A stretch of 64,000 bases of DNA from Bugula neritina (taxonomy: Eukaryota; Bryozoa; Gymnolaemata; Cheilostomatida; Bugulidae). This document shows, in pieces, positions 520 to 59,000 of the stretch. The translations under genes and the position numbers were made by a program. The notes below the pieces were generated by a model that was given only the letters and a program-made list of their open reading frames with translations, was not told the origin of the DNA and made no database searches. The stretch spans positions 28,563,628 to 28,627,627 of the forward strand of contig OZ037767.1 of the NCBI GenBank assembly GCA_964035545.1. Direction: 5' to 3'. The stretch's first letter is position 1. The number at the start of each line of letters is the position of its first letter.

Positions 520-693
520 GTATATGGGAAGAAGATGGAAGTGATCGCAAGTCATCTGTGTTGAGAATAAATTCAGTAGACCAGGATGAAGATCCGGGAA
601 TGTATACTTGCAACATTCACTGCGATTCCACCTCCAACCCTGCACTCAGCTATAAGCTGGAGATGTGTGTGCAAGATGCAGCTACTAAACTTA
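520..693 (+). other. Exon of Notch-like gene: Ig domain half
   Basis: Acceptor tgcag at 515-519, donor gtgaga at 694. The exon enters with two bases of a split codon and leaves in phase 1. It encodes the E/F/G strands of an I-set Ig fold, with the diagnostic L-x-I-x-x-V...D-x-G-x-Y-x-C string. The matching first half (first Cys and Trp) is not found in 1-519, so it must be on an exon before the window. Confidence 0.75.
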
Positions 694-3600
694 GTGAGAT
701 CATTTCCTGTTTGTTATGTAATTCATCAGATATTGCCAGAATGTGCCAAGTCAATATTACACTTATGCGTTAGTTTGCCAGCCATTCACAAATTGCACAT
801 ATTTTAGCTAGAATTTGCTGTTGGTTGTCTCTCCACTTATCTGTCTGTCTTTACTCTGTCTGTCTGCGTGTTTTTATCTACCTCGCTTGTCTAATTTTAG
901 ACTGCAAGGAGTAAAGAGAAACTTGGTTAATTTCATTTTGGAATTTAAAAGTCTCAATACTACTGCAAGCAAAAATAAAAGTTGCCATTACTCTATAAAA
1001 TTTTATGAATAACTAACTATTGCCTATCATATACCTCAGTTGTTATAGACTATCAGTAACTATGACTATGACTACCAGCTAGTGTGACTGTACCATTGAC
1101 TGAATATGCCAGTAACTGTGACTATACCAGTGACTGTGACTGTATCATTGACTGTGACTATGACTGAACCAGTGAATATACCAATAACTGTGACTATACC
1201 AATGATTATGTATATCTGTATAATTTTAGTATCATGTTCACTCTCGACCGAAGAGGACAGCTGTGTGCACACATTTGGAGATGGCAAGTGTGACGAGAAG
1301 TGTGACTCAGAGTCGGAGTTGTATGACGGAGATGATTGTGACCCCTACAGTGAAGACACTTGCGAAGCTGACTGCTTGAGTACATACAGCAATGGGAAGT
1401 GCGAGACCAGCTGCTCTGGCGCACAGGTGACTTGACTGTGTTAGCCCCAAATATTAGAACTCCCAGATCAATGAATATAGTATTTTTGCACAAAGTTGCA
1501 GCTTTACCTGCTATTTTTACCTACCTTTGTCTTTCTGTCCAAGTATCTATCATTATAAGTAAATTCTAGTGAGAAGTGTCGATTCACTTTGAGCTAGTGG
1601 GTCTAAAGGACCCTTTCAGGACAAAATATCATGTAGTTTACTGCTATAGAAATCCTTCTTGATGCATAGAAAAGAAATATCATTTCATTGTAGTCAAGAT
1701 TCCTGTAGGATGGTAGTGACTGCAGTTATCAAAAAAATTGAAAAATACTGGGCTCTAGATAAGAAATATTTTCAAAAATGTCATATTCACACAGAGATTT
1801 TCATTAAGTTGCATTGTATTATACTATTATATAATATTGTTTATGAGTAGCTGGTAATGCAAATAATTACACAACTTCAATGCCTTGGTTGAGTCTGCTG
1901 CATTTTATGTGTGCTTATATATAAATATGATTGTATTTAATGACATTTTTAAATGTATGTTTTTTGATATTTGTTTAATCTAGTTAGTCGCTATATATAA
2001 TACAGTATCAACTTTATTAAAACAGTGCGGCTTTGACGGTGGGGATTGTCCACCTTCTGCACAATCTGTGCACCGGGAATCCATTGCAGTAGTAGTACCA
2101 GCCAACTATACTGATGACCAGAGAAGGCTGCTCTCTATGCAACTCTCTATGACTCTGTCCACTTTGGTAAAGCAGCATGGGAGGGCAACTCCATGGACAG
2201 CTACTAATAACCAAGGCATACAGAAAATGTACCTCAGTCCGTCAGTATTTCAAGAGGCAGGCAACCAGCTGTAAGTTTTCCAGTCTCTAGCCTCCACATC
2301 TCAATATTCTTATTAGTACAGTAGCTAAGATTGTGGAATTTATACCTGATTCAAAGATGAAAAGATGGGTATTGCACTGTTGTGTATTCTTCATAGGTTT
2401 CACAGTATTGGACCATTTAGGTGCAGTAAAAGAATGACTTCAGTATGTTCAGCTCTTTAATTGTATTTATAAATTTTGGTGTAAGATGCCAGCTGAACGT
2501 TCCTGAGGGAATTTGATTTTTTGAGATACCTTATTTCTTATCTAGAGCAAAGTCTGTTTTATATTCCTCTGCATCATTGAACTATAACTCCTTTAAGAAA
2601 GTTTTAGTTCATTACTCCAGATTGCCTTTATTTCTGTTGAGCTGTAACTATATTTTGCTTTGGATACTTGTCTAGATTTTTGAGTAAACAAAATGACCAG
2701 TGTGAGAAAATCTGACTGGGAATAATGCAAACACATTGCTCATTGGTGTCAATAAACTATTTGCTGAACAGCCTAGTAAATAAACATGCCTTCAGTTGAC
2801 TGCAGTAATAGTCTTAGTTCCTTTCTCAAAGCTAACTGAGGGGGGTGGACTTAGCTCCCCTAGAAGTTAACAGAGGGAATAGGCTATGAGTATATGCAGG
2901 CCAGGGCTATGTGAACTATTCCCACTTACTCCCAACAATCAGCTGAACATGTGAATATACTTGCCAATGAAAATATTGAATCTTTTATGTTATAGAAGCA
3001 TTTCATTTGCTACTTCTGTGAAAGTTTCCAAGTATTGACTCAACGTGTTGTACCTGGGCTTTGCATTGTAAGACTGTGCAAAAATAAAAGCATTTATAAT
3101 ATGAATTTAGACTCAATTTTTCCAATAACATATTAGTTAATGGTGAGAGATTACTTTTGAACTGATCTAGAATGTTCCACCGGGAATTACACAGGCAGCG
3201 ACATAGCTCCTTTCTCAGGAAATCATCAATTTACTCTTGCTTGCATCATCATTTTGCACTCATTTTCACTAAAAAGAAATCAATACTTTTTTAAAAAAAA
3301 ACAACAATTACAGCTAATAAATAGTTTAGCTATTCTATTCTAATAAAGTTATGTTTAGGGCTTTACCAACCAATAAATGAGTAAAACATTCTTAAGAGGT
3401 TTCTACAATGCTCAGCACAAGCTTCGAGCTTACCATAGCCAACCTGTACCATAGTAGACCTGGTACTATAACCAATCTATCCCATAGCCAGCATGTCCAG
3501 CACGTAGAGTAGGTCGATTATTATGTTTACAATAAAACTAATGTTATTATTTTAGAATATTACTTCATTACACGCTGGTACCTCAGACCTGTGGCAGCTC

Positions 3601-4534
3601 CAAGTGTTTTTTCAGAGCTAGAAACGCTGCCAAATACATTTCCCATCACCTGACCAAAAACAACAAGTTTGAAAATAGCACAGTGGCTGTCATAGGAAGT
3701 AAGTGGTGATTCTTTAACATCATAAAACAAGCATCAGCTGCTAGTAGTTGCAGCAGTAATTAATTATTATAGGCAGTTACCAATAGTTGCTCACTTCTAA
3801 AGGTAATACAAATTTAACCATCCCTTTCATAGAACACAGTACTTCAGAAGTCGTCAATATGCATTTTCTTCTATGAAATAAATCTAAGAGCAACGCGTTT
3901 TGCACATTTCCAAATTATTTTGTTTCGTGACCAGTTCACAATCCAAATCAACGGACGTAAATTGAACACCAGAAATAAGACAAGACTAACACTTCAAACT
4001 TGCTAAGAACAGCAATGATCTATTCACTTAACTAATTGTGTGTCACAATAAGCTGTTGTGGTGCAGAAAAACTGTTTCCCTATTTTTTCAGTTAGCAGCA
4101 GTTTAGATGATTGCCCTCAGTCTAAGCCAAGAGATCTGGATCCTTCGTACACCGGCAGTTCACCAAAACTAGACTTTGCGAGAAAGAAGACAACTCTGGA
4201 AACAGACAAGTCCACTAAACTTGGTGTAGGAGAAATAGCAGGAATTTCCATGTGTGGTCTTGCAATAGTTTTACTTATTATTGGTATAGTTGTGGCCTGC
4301 AGGTACAGAAAGATAGCTCTGACTAGAAGTAAATCCCAGTCTATAAACAAGGAGTCTCAAATAAAGGAGTACATAGAAAGTATACCCACAGACCTATCTT
4401 CTGATGGGAATAGTAGTGCGGGTGGAGCCAAGTCCCCCCAATCTTCCACAGCAAGGTCAATAGTATTGAGGGATTCTACTATGCCTTCAAGTGTTACCAA
4501 CATTGAAAAATACAGCTTCGAAGAAGATGTATAG
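520..4534 (+). CDS. Notch-like single-pass receptor: Ig, 2x LNR, NOD, NODP, TM, short tail (5' end outside window)
   Basis: Five exons join in phase: 520-693, 1230-1426, 2026-2270, 3556-3698, 4092-4534 (stop TGA-free frame ends in TAG at 4532-4534). The model gives about 400 residues. In order it shows the C-terminal half of an I-set Ig domain (VLRINSVDQDEDPGMYTC), two Lin-12/Notch repeats ending in YDGDDC and CGFDGGDC, a NOD-like segment (IAVVVPANYTDDQ), a NODP-like segment (CGSSKCFFRARNAAKYI, which lines up with the CF-x2-A-x3-A pattern of Notch NODP), a transmembrane helix at 4235-4300 and a 77-residue cytoplasmic tail. LNR plus NOD plus NODP is the Notch negative regulatory region, which controls proteolytic activation. 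No RAM, ankyrin or PEST region follows, and no plus-strand coding exon is seen between 4534 and TEAD. The upstream exons (rest of Ig, any EGF repeats) lie before the window. It could be a Notch paralogue or a separate receptor family; exon structure is well supported, function is inferred. Confidence 0.82.
1076..1206 (+). repeat. Imperfect short tandem repeat (actgtgactatacca-type) in intron 1 of the Notch-like gene
   Basis: Degenerate 12/24-bp units built from actgtgact, ccagtg and atacca. The plus frame is open from 1106 through the following LNR exon and would read as a Val-Thr-rich string. The acceptor at 1228-1229 separates the two, so it is called intronic. Confidence 0.6.
1230..2034 (+). 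other. LNR (Lin-12/Notch repeat) pair, split by an intron
   Basis: Exon 1230-1426 and the first codons of exon 2026-2270 encode two LNRs. The intron lies in phase 0 inside the second repeat, just before CGFDGGDC. Repeat 2 has all six cysteines and the calcium-site DGGDC. Repeat 1 ends ELYDGDDC and has only five cysteines: the residue expected to be the fifth Cys is replaced. Notch itself normally has three LNRs. Confidence 0.8.
2035..3698 (+). other. Notch-type heterodimerisation domain (NOD + NODP), two exons
   Basis: The remainder of exon 2026-2270 carries the NOD-like beta-strand and helix (IAVVVPANYTDDQ, then LSMQLSMTLSTLV). Exon 3556-3698 carries the NODP-like part, with its paired cysteines (CGSSKC) and helix. 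The two join through a codon split 2+1. No RxRR-type furin (S1) motif is visible in the loop between them. Confidence 0.7.
2271..3555 (+). other. Intron 3 of the Notch-like gene
   Basis: 1285 bp between donor gtaagt at 2271 and acceptor tttag ending at 3555. No coding exon, RNA gene or clear repeat seen; only short A/T runs and a short polypurine stretch near 2838. Confidence 0.6.
4092..4534 (+). other. Terminal exon of Notch-like gene: juxtamembrane, TM and cytoplasmic tail
   Basis: Acceptor ttttttcag ends at 4091. The extracellular stalk is Ser/Lys rich. The helix 4235-4300 ends GIVVAC before RYRK, which resembles the Gly-Val gamma-secretase (S3) region of Notch followed by a basic stop-transfer. 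The tail is rich in Ser and ends EEDV, which fits a class III PDZ ligand. The exon has no ankyrin repeats. Confidence 0.75.
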
Positions 4535-19421: not shown

Positions 19422-22400
19422 ATGTCTGAGGCTGCTCCGTGGGTCAACGGTGTTGGCAACACCGCAGCAGAGTCTATTCCCAGCGTCAGCGGCATGAGTA
19501 ATGGTTCCAAAGAAGACGATGACTTGGAGGATGATGGATCTAATGATGCGGAGGGAGTGTGGTCTCCAGAGATTGAGCAGAGTTTCCACGAAGCCCTGGC
19601 CATCTACCCTCCGTGTGGTAGAAGGAAGATCATCTTGTCGGATGAGGGGAAGATGTATGGTAAGTTTAGAGATACATGACTCCTATGCACACTTGATAGC
19701 AGATGTAGATTTAATCCCTGATAAAACAGATTATCTGAAAAATGCTCCTCACTAACAGCTGTTGGCTGTAGTTTTTGAAGTTTCCAATTTGGTAGACATC
19801 CGGCAACTGTGGTTGTGCAGGAGCTATCACCCTTCAAAAAGTGCTCAAGTATTGCATTTGTTTTGCATAAAAACTGATAGAAATTAACTTTTCTCTTACT
19901 TTATGGTAAAGGAAGATGAGACGTGTCTCGTTTTATTCAAAGTGTATACCTATTATTCTTTACTCAATACCGAAGTTAGCTACTTTTACATGTACCAGCA
20001 ATTCGACTTTAGGCCTACTAATGTTATAGTCATTATTATTAATAAATTGAATAGACTGCATACTGCACCAATGTACACATATATGTATCATTATATCCAT
20101 AATATTATTATATATAAAGATAGCCTCTACAGATGTGTTGTGCATGTATTTGGGTGTATATGCTGGCTGTAAGGGGGGGGGGGGGTATATATATGCATGT
20201 GCATGTCGTGTGCATTGGTATATGCCATGTACTTGGTACACCTCAATATATTGAGTGTCCGTATATTTGCCATATATTGCACTGGGGAAAAATGTCATAT
20301 TCCACATTCTCCAACTGCTTGTAGTGAATAGCATACTCGGGTGTTAAGCCAGTAATGCTTGCAACTTCTGGTATTGTGGTTATTTGCTAATTCATCACAT
20401 TCTAGATTCTTCAAATTTCCTTCTTTAAATTTTAGCCATAATGTTTTGCCGGGTATTGTTGGAGCCTTTCTCTTACTGGCTACTTGTAGTTTTTGTTGAG
20501 TAAATAATTGTATCATAACATACTTTGCATGTCTCAAAGTCAAGCCATTGTTGAGATTCTAAAAAGTCTTCGCAGCTTGAAGGTTATTTAGTTGATTATT
20601 GCTGGCTTGCTAATATTCAAAATAATGGAATGCGTCTTCATTTATTTACATTTTTTCTCCCTGTGGAATTTAAAAGTAATTAGCTTTATGCCTCAAGTTG
20701 ACTGCTTGTTCAATCACTGTCCCACAAAGTTACACCAGCTGAAGAGTTGGCAATGCAGATTTCTGTCCCGAGAATAACTAGCAAAGGAAGATTTGGAGTT
20801 TAGACCAACTCTGTACTTATATTGTATGCTAGACAGGGAATCACAACTCCATATTTAATGTTTCATAAACCATTTCTAATTTAGTTGATAATTTATATAC
20901 TAATTTAACCATGTCTGTATTTTTATTTTTTATTTGTTTTATTTATATATATTTATTTATATTATATTTACTAATACTTGCTGTACTTACTAAGTATCGG
21001 TAAATATGAAAGTGAAGTTGTTTTTGTTGGTGATATAAATTGGATGAGATTCCTCTAAATAAATACCTGCCGTGTTTTACATTTTCAGGACATTTTTTCT
21101 GTCAAACAAACATGCCATATAGTATGAATTATGTTTATTTTTAGATTGTAATCATTTTTGACAAATGAAATCCAATTTATTGATTCTTTTATGATGAGTT
21201 GTCATTGAGATTGGAAACAAATAGTTTGCCTTACATTGTTACCTGTATTGTGTTGAAGGGAAAGCTAATTACACCTTTATATTCAAAATCTTTTTGTTAT
21301 GTAACAGTTTATTGATCATCTATTGTTATATCTCATCTAATGAGCTGATTTCTGGTTTTAATGACCATCGGAATGCAATAAAAGTATTGAACTAGTATCT
21401 GATTTGTATTCAATCTGTCTATTTATGAGCTCCTGGGTCTCCAAGTCCCCTAATTATACATTGATTATCAATAGTCATTAAAGTCAGCCTATCTGCTTGT
21501 TTTTGCATGCTTTGTTACTCTGTTTGTGCTTCACACCCTGGAAAACAATAGCTTTTTATTTTGTTGCAGTTCCCAGTAGCTATTTATTAAGTACTCATAG
21601 AGTTATCTTCTCTCTATTGTTTATACAGATGCATGCACTAAACTTGTGACTGTTGCAGGGCGAAATGAACTGATTGCTAGATACATTAAACTTAGGACAG
21701 GCAAGACCAGATCTCGGAAACAGGTGAGCAGCCATATCCAAGTGCTGGCTCGGAGGAAGACCAAAGATATCCAAGGTCAACTGAAAACTGTGCCTGGTGT
21801 AAGCTTCAACTACTCTTTACTATATCTGAGACCAGCTGGCTTTTGCTGCACTCTCACTTCTTCCGGCTGCTTCTGTTCCTTTACCATTTCTATGTTGTTA
21901 TTGGTTATTTGCTGCTTGAACTGGGAACCATTTAACTGCTAACCAATTGCATGCATGCTCTTCTACTAAATTAATTTGCTTTCAAAACTAACAACGTATT
22001 TTGTAAAACTGAATATTCCACCACAGTTTTGCTAGTTGTGGAATTTTCATATTTTGCTCTTTCCTAATCAAATGCTTCACTTTGATGGACTGAAATTGTC
22101 AAAGCACTGGATTGTGTGGGTAGTTGCCTTTCCTTCAGTGTGTTGCATGTAACCTTCACTAATGCAGTAGAATAGACAAGTGTGTAGCTTGCTTGAGCTA
22201 GGAGTAGGCTATTTCTAGAATATAGTAGTTGTGTTCTCCTCTTTAGCTTCGCTGCTTACTCAGACACTGAACTGATGTGAGTTTTATGTGGATTTCTGCT
22301 TTAAATTTTCTGGATGCTTTTTGTCTTAACTGCTTCCGTTATTTTAACATGATGTCTGCACATTGCTCTCTGTTACTGCACATTGCTATTTGTTGCTGCG

Positions 22401-25400
22401 TGGAGTCCTTGGTTTACACACCCAACCCTTTATTATATGTTTCTAAAAGTTATCTCACCTTGAAATTTTGTTTTGCTAATAGCAGTTGTCTTTTCATGTT
22501 GTTATGCATTGTATTAAAGGCTAAACTACATGGCGGATGCTGTCACTGGTAGAAGAGTATTTAGTGTTGGTTTTGAGCTGTTGAACTTGATTTATAGGGC
22601 AGTTGGTCAGTAGACTTGTTGTTCGTGGCTTTTGCAGTTTCAGTCCACCAAAGAAAAAGCGCTTGCCACTCTCAGTACCATGTCATCTGCTCAGATAGTG
22701 TCAGCTTCTGCTTTACAGAGGCCGGGTGGCATGCACATGCACCCCAATCTACCAGCCCACCATCCTGGAATGAGGGCTCCGTACCCACAGCCAACTCATC
22801 CAGGAGCCTGGAACCCGCCGCCACCACCACACGCGGGGGTGGCTGTATCACAAAACCATGAGTATGTATCCAACATGACCAGTATGATGTAAGTGATGTC
22901 CATCAGTAGTCCTACCTGCAAGTACCTTGTTCACACTCTCGTATCATTTACTTTTTCCTGTTGAAAGGTTTATTTCTGGTGAAGGAACCATCTTAGTTTA
23001 TATCATTGATTAAAATTGTTTACTTCTATTTATTTCTGCTATTCAATGTTCAAACTAACACCTTAGCTACAATATCAAGTAATCACATTGAGTTTAATTC
23101 TTATATCATGAATTGAATGGTTCTTGTAGTTGTCTTCCTTTTGTACTCACACTTGTATATCTATATACATTCACAAGGCTGGGATGTTTTACTTGATAAT
23201 AGTAATAGTTTAGGGCTCAATCTGCATAATGCTTGGTAGATGCAGTATATTGTGCATAGCATGAGAACACAACACTATGTGTCATGTTTAACCTTGCGTA
23301 GCATGAAGCCATATGGTGGATATGGAAGTCCTATGATGGATATTAAGCCCTCAATCAACCCACACATGGTGGTGCCCACCGCCTCACCAATCTCACCAAC
23401 TGGTGGCGGGGAGGCGTGGGAGGGCAGAAGCATTGCTGGACCCAAACTTCGGCTCTGCGACTTCTCGGCCTTTCTGGATCAGCAGCGAGACGCTGACACG
23501 GTGAGACAACTCTTGTGCTTCCTTCGGCTCTCCAGCATCTTTGAGACGAGAGGTTTTATTGATTCTGTGGCAGTTCCAATGATTTTTGCTTTTTCCCCAT
23601 CATTAGAATACTGTTGCATATTTAGAGGAGCTTTTGCCTGGCACCATCACATTTAATGTCTTTTAATAGTGCAACTGCAAATAGATGAATAGTTTGTATA
23701 TTAGGCATGTACTATGCGTGTTGACAGCACGAACACAACATTTCACTGCTTACTGGTTGGTTATTTCAACCCTTTGACACATCATCTAGTTTTTATCAGG
23801 ATTTAAACTAAAATTGATTTTATTAATTTGTAGCTGGAAATAAATAAATGAAAATATTTTATATTTATATAGTGTTATACCGATGTGAGGCTCTTAATTT
23901 TCAGTATTTCCTCTCGTTTTAGTATAACAAGCATATATTTGTGCAACTGGGTGGTACTGTGCCAACTTTTGCTGATCCTCAGCTGGAGGTTGTTGATATC
24001 AGACAAATCTACGATAAATTCCCCGACAAGAAAGGAGGGCTGAAGGACCTGTATGAGCAAGGTCCACCTGGGGCTTTCTTTCTGGTTAAGTTCTGGGCAG
24101 ATCTGAATACAACTGTGCAGGAGGAAAGTGGTGCATTCTATGGAGTCACCAGCCAGTAAGTGCTGCCTCTGCATGAACCTTGGCAGCAGTAAACCTTGCT
24201 CGTTATCTGCTGCTTGCTATAGCTCATCAGTTAACCAACTTATTTACTATTCTGTCTTGAACATTTTTTAATAAAGAGCCTTTGCAGAAGGAGTTTTACT
24301 ACTGTTTCATTTAGCTCTCAAACGTCTTGTTCAGAGTATTTGCAGCCAAAGCTCCATAAACTGTGACTCATATGATACTGAAATGGTTTACGCTGAGGAT
24401 ATTCTTGTATTTCTTATTAAGTTACCACATGTTGAAGGTTTTTATTCATTCTGGTAACACACCCCTTCTCCCCACTGCAGGTACGAAAGTGACAAGCAGA
24501 TGACTATCAGTTGCTCAACGAAAGTGTGCTCATTTGGCAAACAAGTGGTGGAGAAAGTGGAGGTAAGGGGGAGGGGGTCATACAAATAAATATTTCAGGT
24601 GAATAATCAGGCAGGTGGTGCATGGCTGACCCTGTGTTCACCACAGGTATGAGTTATGTCAGCAAATGCCAGAAATTGTTGCTGTCATACTCTGCCTACC
24701 AGCATCGACCAACTGAGCTAGAAGTGTGACCACACTCAGCCTTTCACTCACCAAATCCATCAGATTGCACACCCTACCACTCACATCTATCTCTATTCAC
24801 TCAGCAGTTCTGGCTGCCTTTTATTATTGTCTGCCATTGTTTTGCATTTGGCAGCAGGCACTACTTGACACCAGGCAGCCTGCCCTTTCAACTCTGATGT
24901 TGTTTTGACTTGGCTATTGTTTGGAGGCCATGCTTGCTTTAACAGAATACAGTAATGTCAAAACAATGTCGGGGTTTGGTTCCACTCCTGCACCTGGTTT
25001 CACAACTCTGCTTGAGTTGACTTATTCATATCTATCTGAAATTTTACTGTTGTTTAATCATGTAGTTTGTAAGTACTAGTGTACTGTACTGTACTGCTAC
25101 TGGTTGTAATATATGTATATATGATCATTTGTTAACCTTATTAGACGTTGATGCCACCCTTGCAGTCAATATTGCAGCATAAGCTATTACATAGAGTAGT
25201 AGGGTGTGTGGATATCGTATTCACTCAAATACTGTCTATAATTATCTTTCACTGTCTCCACTTAATGGCTGGCATAAACTATAAAGTATAAAGCATAAAA
25301 TTATAGGTGCCTGGTAACTGCTGAAACCAACGACTACAGCTAAGCTATTGTAAATAGAACAATTTATCATGTTTTTGAAATGGATGAGTTGTCAAGGTGC

Positions 25401-36400: not shown

Positions 36401-38496
36401 TACTACGATATTTTTATCTTTCTATTATGATATAATAACACTAGTAGTGCTACCTTATATATGAACTGCCTATAATATACTTGGTGCTCATTTAACTTGC
36501 AAATATATTCTTCGTATGCATCTGCAAAGTAGTCTTAGTTTCAGTCTCAGTCTGAGAGGTAACGTAGTTAGAATTTAGGGCTAGGTATGACTATTCTTTT
36601 TAATTCTTTTTCAAACAAGATTTAAAATCCATGTTATATACTAATAAACTTTATGCTCGTTATACAAAGTGGAATATATTTGAAGCAGTTTATGGTTTTG
36701 CATTTTTGCCAAAGCAATTATTTCAAATTTTGCAAAACTTGCTTTTTATTTGATGGCTACACCTCTTCATCACCGTAGGCATTAGCGAAGATCACAGGAA
36801 GGTGCTATTGATGTATTATCTTTACGTCTAAGAGAAAAAAGAGCTCGCAGCCTTTCAACTGCAGAATAAAAGCAGATGCGAATGATTTATTATAGCCTGG
36901 CCATGCCCTACCAGGCACATTGTTCAACGGCAAGCATACATATACCTTTCAACACAATATAAGTTGGCTATGAGTTTGAGTAAGTATCTTAGAAAGAGTA
37001 GGTGTACTTGGAGGAAGCTGGCTTCTAGAGTCATAGTGTTACACATTATAGACGTCAACACTGCTGCAACTACCCACGCAGTATAATTAAGTGAACAATG
37101 TGTCTCAAACTGCATTTATCAATGGCAGTTTAATAGTGGTAAATGGTAAGCAAGCAAACGTTTCCAGCTACTGGTGTCGTCCATAGAGTGGTTCAAAATT
37201 TTTAGTCAAAATTTCAATTTTATTAAGTTGAAAATTTCACAGAGTTGTCTTGCATTGTAAAAGTTAAAATGATGGTTTTCTTGAGAATTTCAGATTATTA
37301 GTCAAAGGGAATGATAAATTCTTGTAGATAAAGGCCTTTAATTATTACCTTCTTGATTAGAAATCTTTGAATGAAGATTCATTTAAGTATAAGCTTTAAA
37401 TTTCATAATCCTATTAGCTACTTTTCTCAAATACTGCTTTCACTCAATTAACTTTGGGGGTGCATCCTGCTACTAAATGACAACAAATAGTGGTTAAGTG
37501 AGTCATACTGTTGGAAAGTGATTTTCAGTCTCGGACTGATTTCAGTAAGGGGAGATAGAATCAGTGGAATGAACTAAATGCCAGTAGCCTACTAAATGTA
37601 TAAAAGGACTGGCTGGTCTAAAAGACCTGGCAAGAACTTACAGAAATAAACAAATACATTCAGTAATGGTTCTGCACCAATATTTTATAGTAATTTATAT
37701 AAAGCGCTAAAAGAAATAGATTTGGTTGCAATAATGCTAAGATAGAACACTTGGTATATTATTACAGCAAATTGACCAATGACTTGGAAGAAGATAGGCT
37801 TAGTTCAAAGGCACCAGGTGACAATTCAAGTGAGTTCCATCATAAAACCAACTTTAAATGTTTAAATGGTAAGGGCTGATGAAATCCTTGTCTGGGAAGA
37901 TTTTAAAGAACATATTATAGCTTAAAATTGCAAATTTCTTTACCAAACTCTCATGGCTTAAATTTGCATAACACTGCAGACCTGTAGACTGTATTTTATT
38001 CTATAGCTATTATTATAATAATAGGATAAGTTGTTAGATGCAATATTCCCAGCTTAATTGAAATTGTGCCATTTAAATATTATATAACAAAGAGTAAACA
38101 GTTATGTATCTCATCTTATTCAATTTGTAAAACTGTAACTATAATCCTTCTTTGGTCAATAGAAGCTTAATGTTTTCTTTCTGGGATCTAATACAATATC
38201 ATTATCCAATAAATCCAATAAAATAAACACTACTTAACTACAATAGTTTCTATGGCTCTTATTTACATTGACAACAACAAATAGATGCTACGATTGAGCA
38301 GGCTAATGCAACGGACTACGCGTCATTTATGAGGCCACGCCTAATTAACTATAAACTAACCAATCAAATTAAAAATTATTTTACTGTTATCAGGGCGCTA
38401 TGCTAAGCCTGACTACGCTGTATTTTTCATGTAGCAGGCTGCGGCAAACGTCCAACTTATAATTTACCAGAAAATACGATCAACACCGTCATCATT
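33437..38496. other. Intergenic, TEAD 3' flank to CDKN1
   Basis: 5.1 kb of AT-rich DNA including the TEAD 3' UTR. An AATAAA occurs near 34313 but cannot be tied to TEAD. No coding exon, RNA gene or tandem array recognised on either strand. Confidence 0.5.
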
Positions 38497-40661
38497 ATGC
38501 TGGATGCTAGACCTTCTACGACTAACTGGAGGTATCAAAGAAAAATGGACATCAAGCCTTCTGCTGAACTTAAAAAACGTCTTTTCAACGAGCCTCAATC
38601 TGGTGAAAACCTTCAATCGGATATTAATAACTTACTTGGGGAGATACAGCAGGCCGACCAGCTTCGTTGGAACTTTGATTTTACACGCAATGTTCCCCTA
38701 CCAGGCCGGTACAAATGGCAGCTTGTAAGCTCATCAAAGCATTTAGAAGAAATGAACAATAATGATGGCGGCTCCAAGACTCCCCAAACTCCTTCCAAAT
38801 CTAGATTTTCCAAACCTGAATCCAGTGTAGCAGCAAGCCCTAGCACACAGAGAATTATATCAGGTAAGAGAGCCCTCAATTTCTTTACGTCATACTGTTG
38901 AATGAAATCATTCAATTTTAATTTAATGCGGCCATAAATGCTGCTATTGTTGAAGCAACACCCTAACATACCAATATGGATATGCTGGATACTGATGGTA
39001 GTTAGTTATTTGTGCTGTTGAATTAGTATTACTATTAGGACGTCCAGGCACTTGAGTCTTGGAATTGAGTAAAACGTGTTAAGCTGTAAAAACCTCATCA
39101 AAACAGTGGACTAGCATGCTAATATTGGCTAATTGATGGGCTATATTAAAATAGTCATAATGTTAGTTAGATTGGCCATTGGTATAGCCTACCAATACCA
39201 TCATGGAAGTTTGAGAAGGAAGTCTCCAAAATAATATTGATAACTTTCAGTTTCCTCAATGCATATATTCATTTTCATTTAGTCTCTCAGTGTTGAAAAA
39301 GATATCCATTCGATCTTAAATTGTTTTGGAATTGAAAATAATATTCTACTCCTGTCAGCATTTCAATAAATGTAATGCATTGTCATCCATTTCAAGTTCA
39401 AACAATCTGGAAGTATAATATAGGCAGTAAACTCATTTATAAACTTATGAGTTATTTCACTTAACCTAGTCATACAGGATTTTTTTAAATTGCTATCATC
39501 TCATTAATGTTATCTGCATATATCATGAAAATATTTTTTCAGTATCTACAACTTTTCACAACAGAGTTAGTCCAAAAATCCACCAGCATAATATTCTGCC
39601 GAATATACTGAACTATTATATGCTGAAGTCATTTGATTAGTATTACTATTTAGCCAATATTAAAAATGTTTCCTTCAGTGGAAGTAGTCTGCAACTGTGG
39701 TGTGTTTGGCCTTGAAATTGAAATTGTTGATCAAGTATTGAATAAGTATTAAGTGATTAAAAGCCGCTCAATCTGCTAGCATTTCAGTTAGTCATGGTTG
39801 GTTACGACATATTTATTATCATATACAAATAACCACCTATTTGTTTCTAATGCCGGCTCTAATCTACACATTCAAATAGATTTGAATTTAGCGCAAATCA
39901 GTTTGTTTGTCTTCGACTATAATATTAGCACAGCATTATTTACTCGAGTAAACAACGCCCTATTCAACGTTTCCAAAGATGGCTTGGCACGTTGCCTGGA
40001 TTTGCGCTTGAATAGAACAATAGCCACAGCTTGGATTATCAACGAAATTATAGATTTGAATAATTATCATTCCCTAATCTGCCATTTTCATTGGAGGATG
40101 AAGGGAGCCCTTTTTATAGATATTTCAGACTCACAGGTGGTTTTGGTTATCTGTTTTCTCACCCGGAGTGTTGCAACTGCTGTCTACATAAAACTAGGTG
40201 TGTGTAGTATTTGTAACCAAGTAGTATTTGTAACATATAGTTATACAGAGCACACAACTGGTAAAGTGATTACATAACAAAGTGTGTCATTGACTTGCTC
40301 CTAGCCTGCATTATGTAACCACCATAGATAGGTTTTACTGATGGTTAGTATTGGTCTATCAGTCTGGCAGGAATGATTGTTTACTAGCCACTACCCGCCA
40401 TAATCTGGTTAGTTTTCGAACCCATGACAGAATACCCACTGGCTTTTGTTTGTAGAATTTTTCCCTCTGAAGAAAAGAAGCTCGCCTTCCACACACGGTG
40501 ATGAAATAAAAGTGAAGAGGGCGAGAGTTTCATCACCCCTCCTTCGGAATCACGAAGCTAAGCCAACCGTGTCCAGGGCGTTGTCGGGCACATTCAGGCC
40601 CATAAAGTCGTTGAGTTTCGAGAATGACGGAGCAGACTGTGATATCTACGAATCTATTTAA
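38497..40661 (+). CDS. CDKN1: CIP/KIP cyclin-dependent kinase inhibitor (p21/p27/Dacapo family) with PIP box
   Basis: Two exons, 38497-38863 and 40456-40661, join in phase 1 to give 190 residues (human p27 has 198). Members bind cyclin-CDK complexes in the nucleus and arrest the cell cycle. The CDI domain covers residues 25-77: cyclin-docking KRLF (27-30), a linker helix (SDINNLLGEIQQADQ), then RWNFDF (57-62) and GRYKWQLV, as in p27 WNFDF and YEWQEV. The Phe-Tyr-Tyr segment that plugs the CDK ATP site in p27 is not found after it. TPSK at 98-101 is a full CDK phosphorylation consensus. QRIISEFF (118-125) is a perfect PCNA-interacting PIP box formed across the exon junction, followed by bipartite basic NLS-like KKR (128-130) and KVKRAR (141-146). 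An alternative start is Met17 (38545). Confidence 0.93.
38864..40455 (+). other. CDKN1 intron
   Basis: 1.6 kb intron, donor gtaagag, acceptor tttgtttgtag. It contains a 159-codon plus-strand frame (39798-40277) without an ATG start, protein similarity or codon bias that I can recognise, so it is not called as a gene. A short inverted agcgcaaatc pair is seen near 39889 and 40000. Confidence 0.6.
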
Positions 40662-51988: not shown

Positions 51989-53030
51989 ATGAGTTCAGCT
52001 GAAGAATCTAATGGCGTGGCTGGGATTGGCGAGGTCTATGGAGAAGCTTTCCCAGTTCTTCCAACTCGAATGAAACCGCAAAAAACGGTTACGAATGGAA
52101 AGACTGGAAAGGATCCTGAACATATCAAAGCCACTCCTGCTGGATCTCACCCACACATTAGAAGTTCTACCATCACCCAGGTATAGTCTACACTCTACAG
52201 TATGCTAAGAGTCATGTTTGATGAATAATCCTAACGTTATCACTTCTGGAAGCAGAACATTTACATAAGTACGGAGTACCTTGTAAGGTTGCACATAAAT
52301 CATATCAACATAGTCTATTCACCTTGTTGATGGTGTGGCTCTAACCACATGAGTTTGTCCTGGTGTTGGCAGGTCTTTCATGTACCACTCGAAGAGAGGC
52401 GTTACAAGAAGCTGGACCAGGCCTTCAGTTCTGACCGGACAGCCCAAGACCAAGCATGTCAGCAGATCTCCAAGCAACACGATGTTCACATCGAGACCAC
52501 CCTGGCCCGAGACCAGTCCCTCACCGTTGTCCTCACTGGCAAGGCTGATGCCGTAATGAAAGCCAAACGTGACGTCATCAATCGACTTCAAACTCAGGTG
52601 AGTTGTCAGTCTTCTCTATACACGTGCTATCGCAAGGAGTAGTCCAGCAGCTTCAGTCTGTAACTGTGTAATGTTACTGGAATGTAGGCACAGGTCACCA
52701 TCAGCATCCCCAAAGAGCACTACAAGTACATCCTGGGAGCCAAAGGTAAGAAACTGGCCGACTTGGAGCTGGAAACAGCCACCAAAATATTAATACCAAG
52801 GCAAGAGGACTCAAGTGACCAAATCAAGATTACTGGCAACAAGGAGGGGCTGGACCGCGCCATGCATGAGATTCAGCTGATCTCTGATGAGCAGGTAATT
52901 CACCGCTGTACTAGTAGTACTAGTAAAAGTAGTACTAGTAGGAGTAGTAGTTATAGTAGTAGTAGTACTAGTAGGAGTAGTAGGAGTAGTAGTTATAGTA
53001 CTAGTAGTAGTAGTAGTGGTAGTAGTAGTG

Positions 53031-53061
<31 letters not shown>

Positions 53062-56000
53062 TAGTAGTAGTAGTATTAATAGTAGTAATTAATGGTAACC
53101 TCCATTTCACTCTGTGTGTTGAGCTACTGGTACTTCTACCATATGCTGGTAGATAATGATGTTATCAATAAATGACTACAAACCTTTGCCTATAATGTGA
53201 CCTGAAGCTCCATCACCATATGTACAAAGGTTACTTGCCTCAAAGCTGATGGTCTGTTTAGTTGAGATTGAACTATTAGCAATACTAACAAAAACTGTAG
53301 AGCTGGAAAAAGCAGTGCAGTGTTCAGTTTTAATATCTACGCTTGAAAACCTGCCAGTATGAATATCCACCGGGAGTTTGCATAAACCATTAGTTATTAT
53401 ATTTAATTTATGCAGGCTAAACTGGCGTTTGAGAGATTGAATATTCCTAAGATATACCACCCATTCATCACTGGAGCTAACAACACCCAGCTTAAGAAGC
53501 TGCAAGAGTCTACTGGAGCACGCATTAACATCCCCCCACCCAGCGTCATGAAAGATGAGTTGACTGTGGCAGGTGAGAAGGAAGGAGTGAAGAAAGCGGT
53601 GGAAGAGATCAATCGAATTTATAATGAGAAGAAGCAGAGATGTCAAACCGTAAGTTCTTGACATCACGCCAGACAACTATGCATAACGAGACTGTCATGC
53701 CTTGATTGTTGCGCACTGTAGAATGTCACGTTTTTCAAATTCTAGTTATGACATCTCCTTGTATCTTGCATCATAGCTAGTTGGCATATTTGTACTCATT
53801 TATACTGTTTAGTAACATGGACTTAATTCTGTATCCTCAGAGAGCTCTACATCTACCATATTCCTCTACATCTACCATATTTCTCTATGTCTACCATATT
53901 TCTCTATATCTACCATATTTCTCTATGTCTACCATATTTCTCTACATCTACCATATTTCTCTACATCTACCATATTTCTCTATGTCTACCATATTTCTCT
54001 ACATCTACCATATTTCTCTACATCTACCATATTTCTCTACATCTACCATATTTCTCTACATCTACCATATTCCTCTACATCTACCATATTTCTCTATATC
54101 TACCATATTTCTCTAAGTCTACCATATTTCTCTATATCTACCATATTTCTCTATATCTACCATATTTCTCTATATCCACCATATTTCTCTATATCCACCA
54201 TATTTCTCTACGTCTACCATATTTCTCTACATCTACCATATTTCTCTACATCTACCATATTTGCTGTAACTGCAGGTTTCGGTCGAAGTAAGCAAGAAGC
54301 AGCACAAGTACGTCATCGGCCCAAGAGGTCAGGGACTGCAGGAGATCATGGCTCAGTATCAAACCAGCGTTGAAGTTCCACCCCTGGATTCCCCCTCCTC
54401 CACCATCACGCTGAGGGGAGACTCCGCCTCCCTTGGCGCCGCCCTCAGTGCCGTCTACCAGAAGGCTAACAGCATCGTCTCCTTTGAGGTGGCTGCCCCC
54501 TCCTGGCTCCACCGGTTCATTATTGGCAAGCAAGGAGCCAATATAAAGAAGGTATTTGTTGTTTGAGCATATGAATGTACCTGGTGGGAGGTTCTGTTGA
54601 AGTTTAGCATACGTTGATTCTAGTCTGATTTATCTATGTATGTGGCTGCATGTCTGGTGTGGATTATATTAAATGCTGTCATACTTATTTCTTCCTGAAG
54701 CTGAAAGCCAACTTACACAATTGTTACTCCTTGTACATATATGAGAGTATGTCTATATGCACTGTGTATGTGCACTGTCTGTGTGCGCTGTCTATATGCA
54801 CTATCAGCACACAAAGTATGTTCTTCCTACAGCTGATGTCTGAAGTACCCAAGGTTCACATCGAGTTTGCTGATGGAGAGGACAAGATCTGCCTGGAAGG
54901 ACCACCAGAGGAAGTGACTGTGGCGCAGAAGGAGCTGGAGAAGATAGTAGCCGAGTTGAAGCGCACCATGGACTTTGCTGAGGTGAAGGTTGACAAGAAG
55001 GTAAGAGTATTGACTCTGTTGTGACATTCTAATTTCACTTCAAACATTCCACATTAGGAACCACTCTGTATACAATACTGTCAGACTTTCTACAACATTT
55101 GTCTAAACTTTAAGTGTTGTGTGTGTTTGTAGTACCACCGTAATATCATTGGCAAGTCTGGAGCTAACCGACAACGTATGATGACGGAGACTAACACCAA
55201 CATTAGAATACCAAGTGAAGACGACTCCAGTGAAATCATCAGGATAGAAGGCGATCCTGCTGGGGTCAAGGTCGTCAAGGCTGAACTCATGGAAATGGTC
55301 AAGAAAATGGTAAGACTTGCCCTCCAGGCTGGACTTATATTAATAGACCGGCACAAACATGCTCACTATTCAGTAATTAGCAATCATCAGGTTATATATT
55401 GCACGTGACTTTGGTAATTAATCTTGCTTATTCTGGATTATTGTGTGGTGGTGACGGCAATAGACTCTCTGATTTGCAGGATAATGAACGATCACGGGAC
55501 ATACTGATAGAGAACAGGTTTCACCGACAGCTCATTGGACAGAAAGGAGAGTCCATCAAGGAGATAAGAGATAAGTTCAACCAGGTTCAGATCTCTCTGC
55601 CAGACTCTGACAAGAAGAGTGACATTGTGACGCTGAGAGGCCCAAAGCAAGACGTAGAGCAATGCTTCCAGTACTTGACCAAGCTGAACAAGGAACTGGT
55701 AAGTTTCCCCCAACTTCTGAACACTTTCTTATAAACAACCTCTAAACACCTTCTTATAGACAACTTCTGAACACATGTGTGTCTTATTCATGCTAGTGTA
55801 GCACACTGTGTATGCTAGAACTTCAACTGTGCTGTGCATTCAGGAGCTATCTATGTGTGCTGTATGACAGCAACAGAGTGATCTTGTAGTTAATGTCTTC
55901 TGCTACTAAACAGTTTTTTGTAACATTATAAAGCTTTGTATTTACTGATCATGAAGATATATTTGGTCAGAATGTTATGTTTCATTATAGAAGGTGAAAT

Positions 56001-59000
56001 GTTCTCTATATGTGTATGATGTAAGGTTTAGTGATAACTTTTCTATTTATTTTCTTGGTTTTCTGGTGAAACTATTTAGAAAAATTATACAAACACTAAG
56101 TCTGTTGAAATTAGTGTTACTTCGGCTTTTAAATGGTACAAAGTGCAAAAGGTGACAAAACCTTTACTTCTTCTGCTGCCCACAAGACTTTCTGTAACAT
56201 TCATATTATTGCCTTGATTCTTTTGATTTTGAACTTATCTTGCGAAGAAGTTAGAATTTGTATTCTAATGAAAATAGAATCACTGTTGCAGACTAGAGAT
56301 TGAATGTTAATTACAGTTCTTCCTAGCTAAGGTTTTCCTATGACTACTATTTGCAGGTCTTGAATAACCATGTTGGGGAAGTGAAAATATTCAAAGACTT
56401 CCATAAGAATGTGATTGGCAAAGGAGGTGCCACCATCAAGAAGATACGAGATGAGACAGACACGCGTATTGACTTGCCCAATCAGATGTCGGCCTCGGAC
56501 ACCATCAAGATCACCGGCAAGAAGGAGAACGTGGAGAAAGCCATCACCATGATAGAGAAAATACAGAAGGAGCTGGCCAACATAGCGGAGGAGTTTGTTG
56601 ACATTCCCCACAAGCTGCACAACTCTGTGATCGGTGCAAAGGGCAGATTCATCAGAGCTCTTATGGAGGAGTGCGGGGGCGTGCAGATCAGGTTCCCCGC
56701 CGAGAACTCTGCTAGTGATCGGGTGAGTAGGCTAAGTTATTCTTTCTGCAGCTCTAGGGTGAAAGTAGCAACTGTTTGGTGTCACATGTAGTTCATCTAA
56801 CAAGGTAAATAGTGTGTCTTTGCTTTGATATTACCAACCTGTTGATCATTACAAGGAAATGTTTGTACATGCGACACACCAACACATTACAAGAGTTTAA
56901 TATTGTTTGCTGACCCACTAACCCTTGTTGTGCTAATTGCTGTTGTTTGCTGACAGGTGGTAATCCGAGGTCCCAAGGAGGACGTTGAGAATGCCAAGAA
57001 GCAGCTTCTGGAGCTGGTTGAAGACCGTAAGATCAACTCTTACACTGCTGAGCTCAAAGTCAAGCCTGAGTTCCACAAGTTCCTGATTGGCAGGGGAGGA
57101 GTCAACATACGCAAGGTTTGTCCATGTAAACTGACTCTTAGTATTATCTAGATGCTGTGTATCGAAATCCATAACTTGTAGTCCAAGTGTATGTAATCAG
57201 ATACTGAGCTTAGCATTATATACTCTGTGTACTTGATATGAACTGCTGGCTGAGTCTCCATTTACTCTCTTGGTTGTCTCCCGTACCTGCGCAGTGATTA
57301 TCTCCTCCGGTATAGTTGACAACACGCCGTGTTTATGTTGGCAGGTGAGAGATAATTTTGGAGCAAGAGTTATCTTCCCAGCTGTTGGTGATGAGCAGCC
57401 CGACATCATCACTCTGATTGGCAAGAAGGAGAGTGTGGAGAAGGCTAAAGCCCATCTTGAGGAGCAGATAGTGGAACTGGTGAGCACAGCCCTGTATTTC
57501 CTGTTGGCTTGTTGTGTACTTTATGTAGAGTTTATATTCATTCTCGTGGGTTGGCTGATCATACATACACACACTATATAGCATAGAGTCATAGACTATA
57601 ACCTGACCCTCATGCTTGAATATTCTCTAACAGGAGAAGATCGTGGAGGACACTGTGGACGTTCCTACCAAGTGGCACAAGAACTTTGTTGCACGACGTG
57701 GTGAGATGCTGACGCAAATTGCTGCCGATTACGGAGGTGTGAGCATCAGCCTGCCGCGCAACGGGTCCAACAGTGAGACCATCAAACTGAGCGGCGCCAA
57801 GGAGTGTGTGGCCGGAGCCAAGCAGAGGATACTGGAGATTGTCGATGATCTGGTGAGTGTCGACAGCGCTGACGGACTGGCTGACAGAGTAGCTAGAGTG
57901 TGTCATGGTGTCAGTTCACTCAGCAACCTCACTTCCTGTGCAATTGGCTGACCATAAAATCCTCACTTATTCTCATCTATCTCCATCTCCGCTTTGTCCT
58001 GTTCAAGTAGCGGGAAAAGACGATAGACAATATAATGAGGGAATAAAACTTTATTATTACTTGTTGAGATGAAATTTATAGCTTGAGTTCTGTTGTGTTG
58101 CTGTAGGAGGCACAGGTTACTATCGAGTGTGTCATACCCCAGAAACACCACAGGAGTGTAATGGGAGCCAAGGGTATCAATGTTCAGGAGATTACTAAAC
58201 AGTACAATGTCAACATTAAGTTTCCCGAGAGACCACGTCAGAGTCGACCTTCAGAAGACCTTTCACCTCAGGTTAGCTGGCAGCTGCAAGATTTTTCTAC
58301 TGTAAGGATATAATATTTTAAATGATTACAAAACAAGGAAATATTCTGAAACTGCTTTTGTGGAAAGGCTGCTTTCATTTTTAACTGCAACCGATTGCGT
58401 AGCAACTTGAATAGGACTCTGTTGACTGCACCATCGCACCTACTGTGACTGGAGTCTGCTGACAGTGTACATTCACTTGACCAAGATACAACTGTTGGCA
58501 TGTGACTACATGTGTAATAAACATATGGGATAATGAATTATATATACAATATTTTATTATATACAACAGCGATTTATCATGATTGTATTTAACTAATTGA
58601 CAACTTGCTATCTGTCAATTCTGAATGTGGACTCAATGTTATTTAGACTGTGGATACAATGTTAGTTAGACTGTGGATACAATGTTATTTAGACTGAGGA
58701 GCCACCTGCACTCAGCAATGGGGACGGTGACGCCACCACACCCTCACCACAAGATATTATAATGGTGAGCGGTAAGAAGGAAATGGCTGAAGATGCTAGA
58801 GATGCTCTGCAAGCACTCGTTCCTATGACCAAGGAGATGGAGATACCTTTTGAGTTCCACCGATACATCATTGGACAGAAAGGTGGGCGCGTGCTTCTAG
58901 TTAGCGCTGGAGACAGTTCGTCTTAGCAGTTGTTCCACTGCAACCTTTTGATGCTATAACTGTCTAGTGTCCATGCTTTATTGGCTTATATAAATAGAAC

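What the first reader, a model, noticed from the sequence alone, without database searches (positions are those of the whole stretch)
520..4534. Notch-type regulatory region (LNR-NOD-NODP) on an Ig-domain receptor without RAM or ankyrin repeats
Five phase-consistent exons encode Ig, two LNRs, NOD, NODP, one TM and a 77-residue tail that stops before any signalling domain. In known animal Notch proteins this regulatory region follows EGF repeats and precedes RAM/ankyrin. Here the mechanosensitive proteolytic switch seems attached to an Ig ectodomain and a different, short tail. It could be a decoy, an adhesion receptor with Notch-like shedding, or a new signalling receptor.
Basis: partly seen in the sequence, partly recalled or inferred. 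Interest (0 to 1): 0.88.

Follow-up and report, generated by a model that had tools for sequence, protein, structure and literature searches.

The report
Ig receptor with Notch-like cleavage switch
A moss-animal (bryozoan) gene appears to join one immunoglobulin domain to part of the force-sensitive cleavage switch best known from Notch, with a short tail that lacks the Notch signalling parts; if expression and cleavage are confirmed, the switch has been reused in a different kind of receptor.

Summary
The window holds five of seven GT-AG, phase-consistent exons of a 486-residue type I membrane protein; two exons fetched from the same contig supply the ATG, signal peptide and first half of the Ig domain. 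Order: signal peptide, one Ig, two LNRs, a Notch heterodimerisation-like (HD) domain, ~50-residue stalk, TM, and a 77-residue tail without Trp (no RAM motif) or ankyrin. No EGF repeats. The LNRs are certain (Pfam 5e-10). The seven best solved-structure matches are Notch regulatory regions (best 5.9e-10), mostly through the LNRs. The HD assignment is moderate: NODP-like half detectable below Pfam's cut-off, NOD half not. The genome has a canonical Notch and presenilin, ADAM10, CSL and DSL matches. Mitochondrial code and gene order point to a bryozoan close to Bugula, not a sponge. The switch is incomplete: two LNRs, one missing cysteine, no furin-type site, and a lone cysteine ten residues past the S2-like Ala-Val. 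Best reading: an Ig adhesion receptor with Notch-like regulated shedding. Cleavage, expression and conservation are untested.

The parts
520..693 (+). exon 3 of 7: second half of the Ig domain (Ig to about 668), phase 1-1; exons 1-2 lie upstream of the window at C3 28560090-28560165 and 28561818-28562000
   Evidence: splice borders and phases; Ig_3 0.0083 / I-set 0.0087 below cut-off; DPGMYTC read in the sequence
1230..1426 (+). exon 4: linker, LNR-1 (about 1235-1339) and most of LNR-2 (from about 1361)
   Evidence: Pfam LNR; phases 1-0; Cys spacing
2026..2270 (+). exon 5: end of LNR-2 (to about 2049) and NOD-position half of the HD (about 2077-2270)
   Evidence: position between the LNRs and the NODP-like exon; tblastn of residues 200-266 to the own Notch LNR-C/NOD exon, 24% identity, E 0.069; no Pfam NOD match; its ORF is not in the top 20
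3556..3698 (+). exon 6: NODP-like half of the HD with Cys304/Cys309 and S2-like Ala336-Val337 (3686-3691)
   Evidence: Pfam NODP below cut-off; best of the 1975 ORFs other than the three own-Notch HD exons; Notch3 alignment
4092..4534 (+). exon 7: stalk with Cys347 (4112-4114), TM (about 4235-4300), 77-aa cytoplasmic tail (4301-4531), stop

Best explanation
A type I membrane receptor of a Bugula-like bryozoan, apparently single-copy: signal peptide, one Ig domain (ligand or homophilic binding), two LNRs folded over an HD/SEA-like domain, stalk, TM, short Ser/Thr-rich tail. Shown by sequence: gene model, LNRs, order, lack of EGF, RAM and ankyrin. Moderately supported: the domain between LNRs and TM is a Notch-type HD. 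Inferred: pull on the Ig domain lifts the LNRs off the HD, an ADAM cuts at or near Ala336-Val337 and releases the Ig ectodomain; the stub is turned over or cut by gamma-secretase, probably after further trimming because the stalk is long. The output is regulated adhesion or a soluble Ig fragment, not CSL-dependent transcription.
For: Gene model with 6 of 6 consistent splice junctions. LNR E 5.1e-10. Solved-structure search: 10 sequences at E<=10, the first 7 of them Notch regulatory regions at E<=1.7e-05; the best (Notch3, 5.9e-10) aligns residues 155-320, through both LNRs into the HD. HD profile from the own Notch plus Notch1 and Notch3: real segment 11.1 bits, best of 2000 shuffles 7.4. Ranking of 1978 ORFs: the exon-6 ORF comes first after the three own-Notch exons that helped build the profile (7.4 bits, next 4.9). 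tblastn aligns residues 200-266 with the own Notch LNR-C/NOD exon (E 0.069). A Cys pair and an Ala-Val sit at the Notch positions (by eye). LNR-1 has the Cys spacing of the own LNR-B apart from the missing fifth Cys. Enzymes: two presenilin loci, one ADAM10-type Cys-rich match. Several SEA-like domains with a structured N-terminal neighbour could replace the Notch switch in a cell assay (PMC6586460, passages). Single copy: this is the only LNR place of the 4 found that lies outside Notch and a GNPTAB-like gene.
Against: The NOD profile does not match; the HD alone has no hit in the solved structures at E<=10. Pairwise scores against the own Notch and Notch1 HD are not above shuffles (287 and 113 of 1000 reach the local score; 738 and 980 of 1000 the end-free global one; Notch3 17 and 10 of 1000). 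Within the whole protein the HD profile scores 8.2 bits. The exon-5 ORF is not in the top 20. There is no third LNR; in Notch1 the LNR-AB linker plugs the S2 site (PMC3145759, passages). LNR-1 lacks one Cys. The only basic motif found by the scan is in the stalk (residue 370), none in the HD. The stalk after the Ala-Val is 50 residues against 20 in the own Notch (ends set by eye), and gamma-secretase affinity falls with ectodomain length (PMC7248309, passages). Single-copy is weakly based: the LNR scan gives lower bounds and missed the own Notch LNR-C, and the whole-protein search did not complete. No expression or relatives could be tested.
Confidence: 0.55

Rival explanations
1. An adhesion receptor in which the LNR-HD piece is a degenerate spacer. 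It came from a Notch-type module but no longer hides a protease site, so it is either not shed or shed constitutively.
For: No third LNR, LNR-1 lacks Cys5, only one Leu with acidic residues in the C1-C2 segment of LNR-1, NOD half unrecognised by Pfam, no S1-type site in the HD. In Notch1 removing LNR-A, its linker and LNR-B facilitates ligand-independent activation (PMC3145759, passages).
Against: LNR-2 keeps all six Cys, the HD Cys pair and an Ala-Val are kept, and the frame is intact over seven exons.
Confidence: 0.25
2. An independent assembly: LNRs plus an unrelated SEA-like or other juxtamembrane domain, not derived from the Notch HD.
For: Weak HD similarity; by eye no intron of the region is at the same position as in the own Notch; LNRs occur in other proteins such as the GNPTAB-like gene on C5 (named by eye).
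Against: Order LNR-LNR-HD-TM as in Notch; NODP is the only Pfam family found in the two HD pieces scanned; exon 6 ranks first among the 1975 ORFs other than the own-Notch HD exons.
Confidence: 0.13
3. A gene-model error: the Ig exons and the LNR-TM exons belong to different transcripts, or an unseen 3' exon adds a signalling domain.
For: No RNA evidence; introns are up to 2.1 kb and were joined by eye and phase.
Against: 6 of 6 junctions GT-AG and in phase, signal peptide, Ig split over two 1-1 exons, in-frame stop in the last exon; no ankyrin family in 81 window ORFs.
Confidence: 0.07

Closest known systems
Notch receptors (negative regulatory region: LNR-A/B/C + HD), including the same genome's own Notch on C8
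   Same: LNRs directly before an HD-like domain before a single TM; HD Cys pair and an Ala-Val at the S2 position; LNR-1 spacing as in the own LNR-B apart from one missing Cys
   Different: Ig instead of EGF repeats; two LNRs, not three; NOD not recognised; no S1-type site in the HD; 50-aa stalk with a lone Cys; no RAM or ankyrin
SEA-like proteolytic-switch receptors with another neighbouring domain (dystroglycan, protocadherin-15, CDHR2; Trop2 more weakly; PMC6586460, passages)
   Same: juxtamembrane SEA-like candidate domain preceded by a structured domain in an adhesion-type receptor
   Different: here the neighbour is LNRs, as in Notch, with Ig further out
Partial Notch-like proteins: five choanoflagellates with a subset of Notch domains (PMC6040629, passages); planarian DjNotch3-6, which lack the classical set (PMC10970066, passages)
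   Same: some Notch domains without the full set
   Different: their exact architectures were not seen; no Ig mentioned in the passages
Other LNR proteins: GNPTAB (a like gene on C5 here), pappalysins
   Same: LNR module
   Different: enzymes (recalled); no Ig-LNR-HD-TM order
Shed single-pass Ig adhesion receptors such as CAR (PMC3756012, search listing only)
   Same: Ig ectodomain, short tail, shedding expected here
   Different: no LNR-HD region in them (recalled)

Membership tests
Notch receptor (diagnostic LNR/EGF/ANK, Table 2 of PMC2770060) | EGF repeats in the ectodomain | tested here: not met
   signal-peptide exon, then Ig; no EGF family among the 4 Pfam families matching the full protein at E<=10
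Notch receptor | three LNRs | tested here: not met
   two; the own Notch gives three with the same library
Notch receptor | NOD and NODP | tested here: inconclusive
   NOD no match; NODP 10.5-15.1 bits, cut-off 25; custom HD profile not reached by any of 2000 shuffles
Notch receptor | RAM and ankyrin repeats | tested here: not met
   77-aa tail without Trp ends in a stop; no ankyrin in 81 window ORFs, control positive in 3 of 3 own-Notch ORFs
Notch-type regulatory region (LNR + HD) | LNRs adjoining an HD/SEA-like domain next to the TM | tested here: inconclusive
   LNRs met; HD by weak similarity and position; fold not predicted because a spliced protein falls outside the stated rule of structure prediction
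Notch-type regulatory region (LNR + HD) | force- or ligand-dependent ADAM cleavage | not testable with these tools
   needs cell assays
Immunoglobulin superfamily | Ig fold with Cys pair, core Trp and DxGxYxC | tested here: inconclusive
   three Pfam models (Ig_3, I-set, Ig_4) match, all below cut-off; C50, W69, C117 and DPGMYTC are present
gamma-secretase substrate | TM cut after ectodomain shedding | not testable with these tools
   presenilin loci exist

The most novel reading that the evidence does not exclude
A Notch switch rebuilt with a covalent latch. One LNR and the hydrophobic plug are gone. LNR-1 has lost Cys5, leaving its Cys1 (Cys147) without the usual partner, and the stalk has gained one lone Cys (Cys347) ten residues past the S2-like Ala-Val; in the own Notch the stretch between S2 and the TM has none. 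If Cys147 and Cys347 pair, a disulfide next to the S2 site replaces the LNR-A clamp, and release of the Ig ectodomain needs both pull and reduction: an Ig adhesion receptor with a redox-gated Notch-type switch.
Probability: 0.12. Interest if true: 0.85.

Novelty: new variant of a known kind. Interest (0 to 1): 0.58.

Why it matters
The Notch regulatory region is usually treated as a part of Notch (recalled), although SEA-like relatives of its HD occur elsewhere (PMC6586460, passages). A natural receptor carrying LNRs plus HD on an Ig ectodomain would show that the switch can move as a unit, would be a natural counterpart to synthetic Notch-type receptors, and would let one ask what the minimal working switch is: two LNRs, no plug, long stalk.

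Tried and rejected
Considered and rejected: sponge origin (mitochondrial code AGA=Ser, ATA=Met; gene order as in the Bugula neritina table); continuation into RAM/ankyrin exons; upstream EGF exons; further LNR paralogues (the LNR profile over the whole genome gives 4 places at E<=0.001: two in Notch, one GNPTAB-like, this gene; lower bounds, and the own Notch LNR-C was missed). NCBIfam gave nothing at E<=1. Rfam and tRNA scans of the window gave nothing. ARAGORN found no tRNA in the mitochondrial contig either (it uses a bacterial setting), so the tRNA part of the Bugula map is unchecked.

Led nowhere: the paralogue search with the whole protein in the own genome did not complete (12 calls); the homologue database is switched off, so conservation in other species is untested. 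Ten literature searches were answered: six on this question, three on mechanism, one on bryozoan mitochondria (82); one more was rejected for its wording. The six listed 3 of 3, 10 of 10, 1 of 1, 4 of 4, 15 of 27 and 12 of 117 papers, seen as titles and starts of abstracts; none of these named an Ig plus LNR-HD protein. The library holds open-licence PMC papers only. Papers were read as passages found by terms, none in full. Against novelty: PMC7649014 (passages) reports NOD/NODP motifs in Notch-like proteins of other kingdoms, bacteria included; I did not check that claim.
Full report
What is there. The window lies at C3 28563628-28627627 of a 215.8 Mb genome. Its first 4.5 kb hold five exons on the + strand, at 520-693, 1230-1426, 2026-2270, 3556-3698 and 4092-4534. 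Ten kb of upstream DNA (L005) supplied two more: L005 6391-6466, with the ATG, an in-frame TAA three codons upstream of it and a signal peptide (by eye); and L005 8119-8301, with the first half of the Ig domain. All six junctions are GT-AG and the phases fit (1, 1, 1, 0, 2, 1). The product has 486 residues. Exons are richer in GC than introns (7 exons 0.37-0.51, 5 of 6 introns measured 0.30-0.35). Exons 2 and 3, which encode the Ig domain, are both of class 1-1, the classic shuffling class (recalled).

Domains. Pfam matches the whole protein at E<=10 with LNR (two stretches, 5.1e-10, 40.1 bits, cut-off 21.2) and, below cut-off, I-set (0.11), NODP (0.68) and a defensin-like model overlapping LNR-2 (2.2). 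The Ig part alone gives Ig_3 0.0083, I-set 0.0087 and Ig_4 0.053, all below cut-off. Against solved structures 10 sequences match at E<=10. Seven are Notch regulatory regions at 5.9e-10 to 1.7e-05; the other three, at 0.067 to 4.1, are the protein FI02838p (7dxi), a single Notch1 LNR and GNPTAB. The Notch3 alignment runs over residues 155-320, through both LNRs, the NOD position and the NODP Cys pair, but the score is carried by the LNRs: the HD alone matches nothing at E<=10.

Is the HD real? I built a profile from the HD of this animal's own Notch (exons joined) and those of Notch1 and Notch3 (letters). The window's HD scores 11.1 bits; 2000 shuffles reach at most 7.4. Pairwise, only Notch3 stands out (17 of 1000 shuffles reach the local score, 10 of 1000 the end-free global one); the own Notch (287, 738) and Notch1 (113, 980) do not. 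Over 1978 six-frame ORFs of at least 30 aa from the window and L005-L010, the profile ranks the exon-6 ORF fourth, after three own-Notch exons that match by construction: 7.4 bits, E 0.53, next ORF 4.9 bits; the exon-5 ORF is not in the top 20 shown. In a tblastn of the protein against the same DNA, residues 200-266 align with the own Notch exon that carries LNR-C and the start of NOD (24% identity, E 0.069). So the NODP-like half is supported by several weak and consistent signals plus position, the NOD half by position and one marginal alignment. Earlier work reports that Pfam NOD/NODP were not found in sponge or choanoflagellate Notch (PMC2770060 and PMC6040629, passages), so a missed match is not decisive. 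But this animal's own Notch is matched well (NOD 78.0, NODP 45.8 bits), so the window's HD is truly diverged.

Anatomy of the switch. LNR-1 Cys spacing is 9, 9, 4, 12; the own Notch LNR-B is 9, 9, 4, 5, 7, so Cys5 is missing. LNR-2 is complete (4, 9, 4, 5, 7, the spacing of the own LNR-A rather than of LNR-C, which is 8, 9, 4, 5, 7). By similarity the two LNRs cannot be assigned cleanly: LNR-1 aligns with both LNR-A (52%) and LNR-B (40%), LNR-2 with LNR-B and LNR-C. The C1-C2 segment, which in Notch LNR-B holds the LNR-AB linker, is SLSTEEDS in LNR-1 here and TAIAKGIP in the own LNR-B. After the S2-like Ala336-Val337 come 50 residues to the TM (20 in the own Notch; S2 and TM ends set by eye) with one Cys, 347. 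In Notch1 the LNR-AB linker fills a void beside the strand holding S2, and loss of LNR-A, linker and LNR-B facilitates ligand-independent activation (PMC3145759, passages). LNR disulfides are 1-5, 2-4, 3-6 (recalled), so Cys147 lacks its partner. Pairing of Cys147 with Cys347 is my inference and depends on how the six Cys of the Ig part (36, 50, 59, 117, 121, 136) pair. N-glycosylation motifs include Asn332, four residues before Ala336.

Tail. 77 residues, Ser/Thr-rich, no Trp, ending EEDV, which resembles a class III PDZ ligand (recalled, untested). No Pfam family at E<=0.01 in the last-exon ORF.

Genome context. The own Notch on C8 has EGF, three LNRs, NOD, NODP and ankyrin by Pfam, and a TM and a WFPE RAM-like motif by eye. 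Presenilin matches lie at two loci (C3 and C7), an ADAM10 Cys-rich match at one, CSL BTD at one, DSL at three places. By eye none of the introns inside the LNR-HD region falls at the same place as in the own Notch, so a recent copy is unlikely.

Host. Contig C295 (15,248 bp) carries nad3-nad2-cox2-cob-nad4L-nad4-nad5-nad1-cox3-(rRNA-sized stretch)-nad6-cox1-atp6 on one strand (gene names are mine from the translations; atp8 not looked for; no tRNA found by ARAGORN). This is the order tabulated for the protein genes of Bugula neritina (15,433 bp), which its authors call quite different from those of other metazoans (PMC2678162, passages). COX1 uses AGA at Ser and ATA at Met positions (the conserved positions are recalled). 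Two primers printed there match with 2 and 0 mismatches. A COX1 copy with nearly the same score lies in nuclear contig C6 (433.3 against 435.4 bits). The animal is therefore most likely a bryozoan near Bugula; the species is not determined.

How it most likely works. Ig binds a partner; pull unloads the LNRs; ADAM cuts in the HD; the ectodomain leaves. Only the parts list is shown; every step of action is inferred. Without RAM or ankyrin, Notch-type transcription is not expected of this product as modelled. With one LNR fewer the switch may be leaky, and constitutive shedding is a live alternative.

Novelty. It fails three defining features of Notch (EGF, three LNRs, RAM/ankyrin), so it is not a Notch receptor. 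It may well work like the Notch switch. I found no report of this arrangement in the searches named under Tried and rejected. Precedents for partial Notch-like proteins exist (choanoflagellates, PMC6040629; planarian DjNotch3-6, PMC10970066; passages only), and one paper claims NOD/NODP motifs far more widely (PMC7649014, passages).

Noticed in passing
window 21601-23653 (+): TEAD-type transcription factor: TEA and YAP-binding families each match 2 of 81 ORFs; placed here by eye from the translations.
   Followed up: partly
window 38413-38898 (+): CDK inhibitor (p27/Kip-type CDI domain, 1 of 81 ORFs; place by eye).
   Followed up: no
window about 52300-60000 (+): Vigilin-like gene with many KH domains (KH_1 in 10 of 81 ORFs; place by eye).
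   Followed up: no
G000 C17:12213-13505, C196:13159-17283, C65:40884-42662: Further COX1 matches on other contigs: one without TGA (bacterial-like), two with TGA; perhaps symbionts, contaminants or split mitochondrial genes.
   Followed up: no
G000 C6:11174072-11175412: Nuclear copy of a mitochondrial COX1, 9 TGA, nearly the same score as the C295 gene.
   Followed up: no
L007-L008 (G000 C8 7282000-7301999): Own Notch keeps strong NOD/NODP matches and an RVRR stretch near the S1 position.
   Followed up: partly
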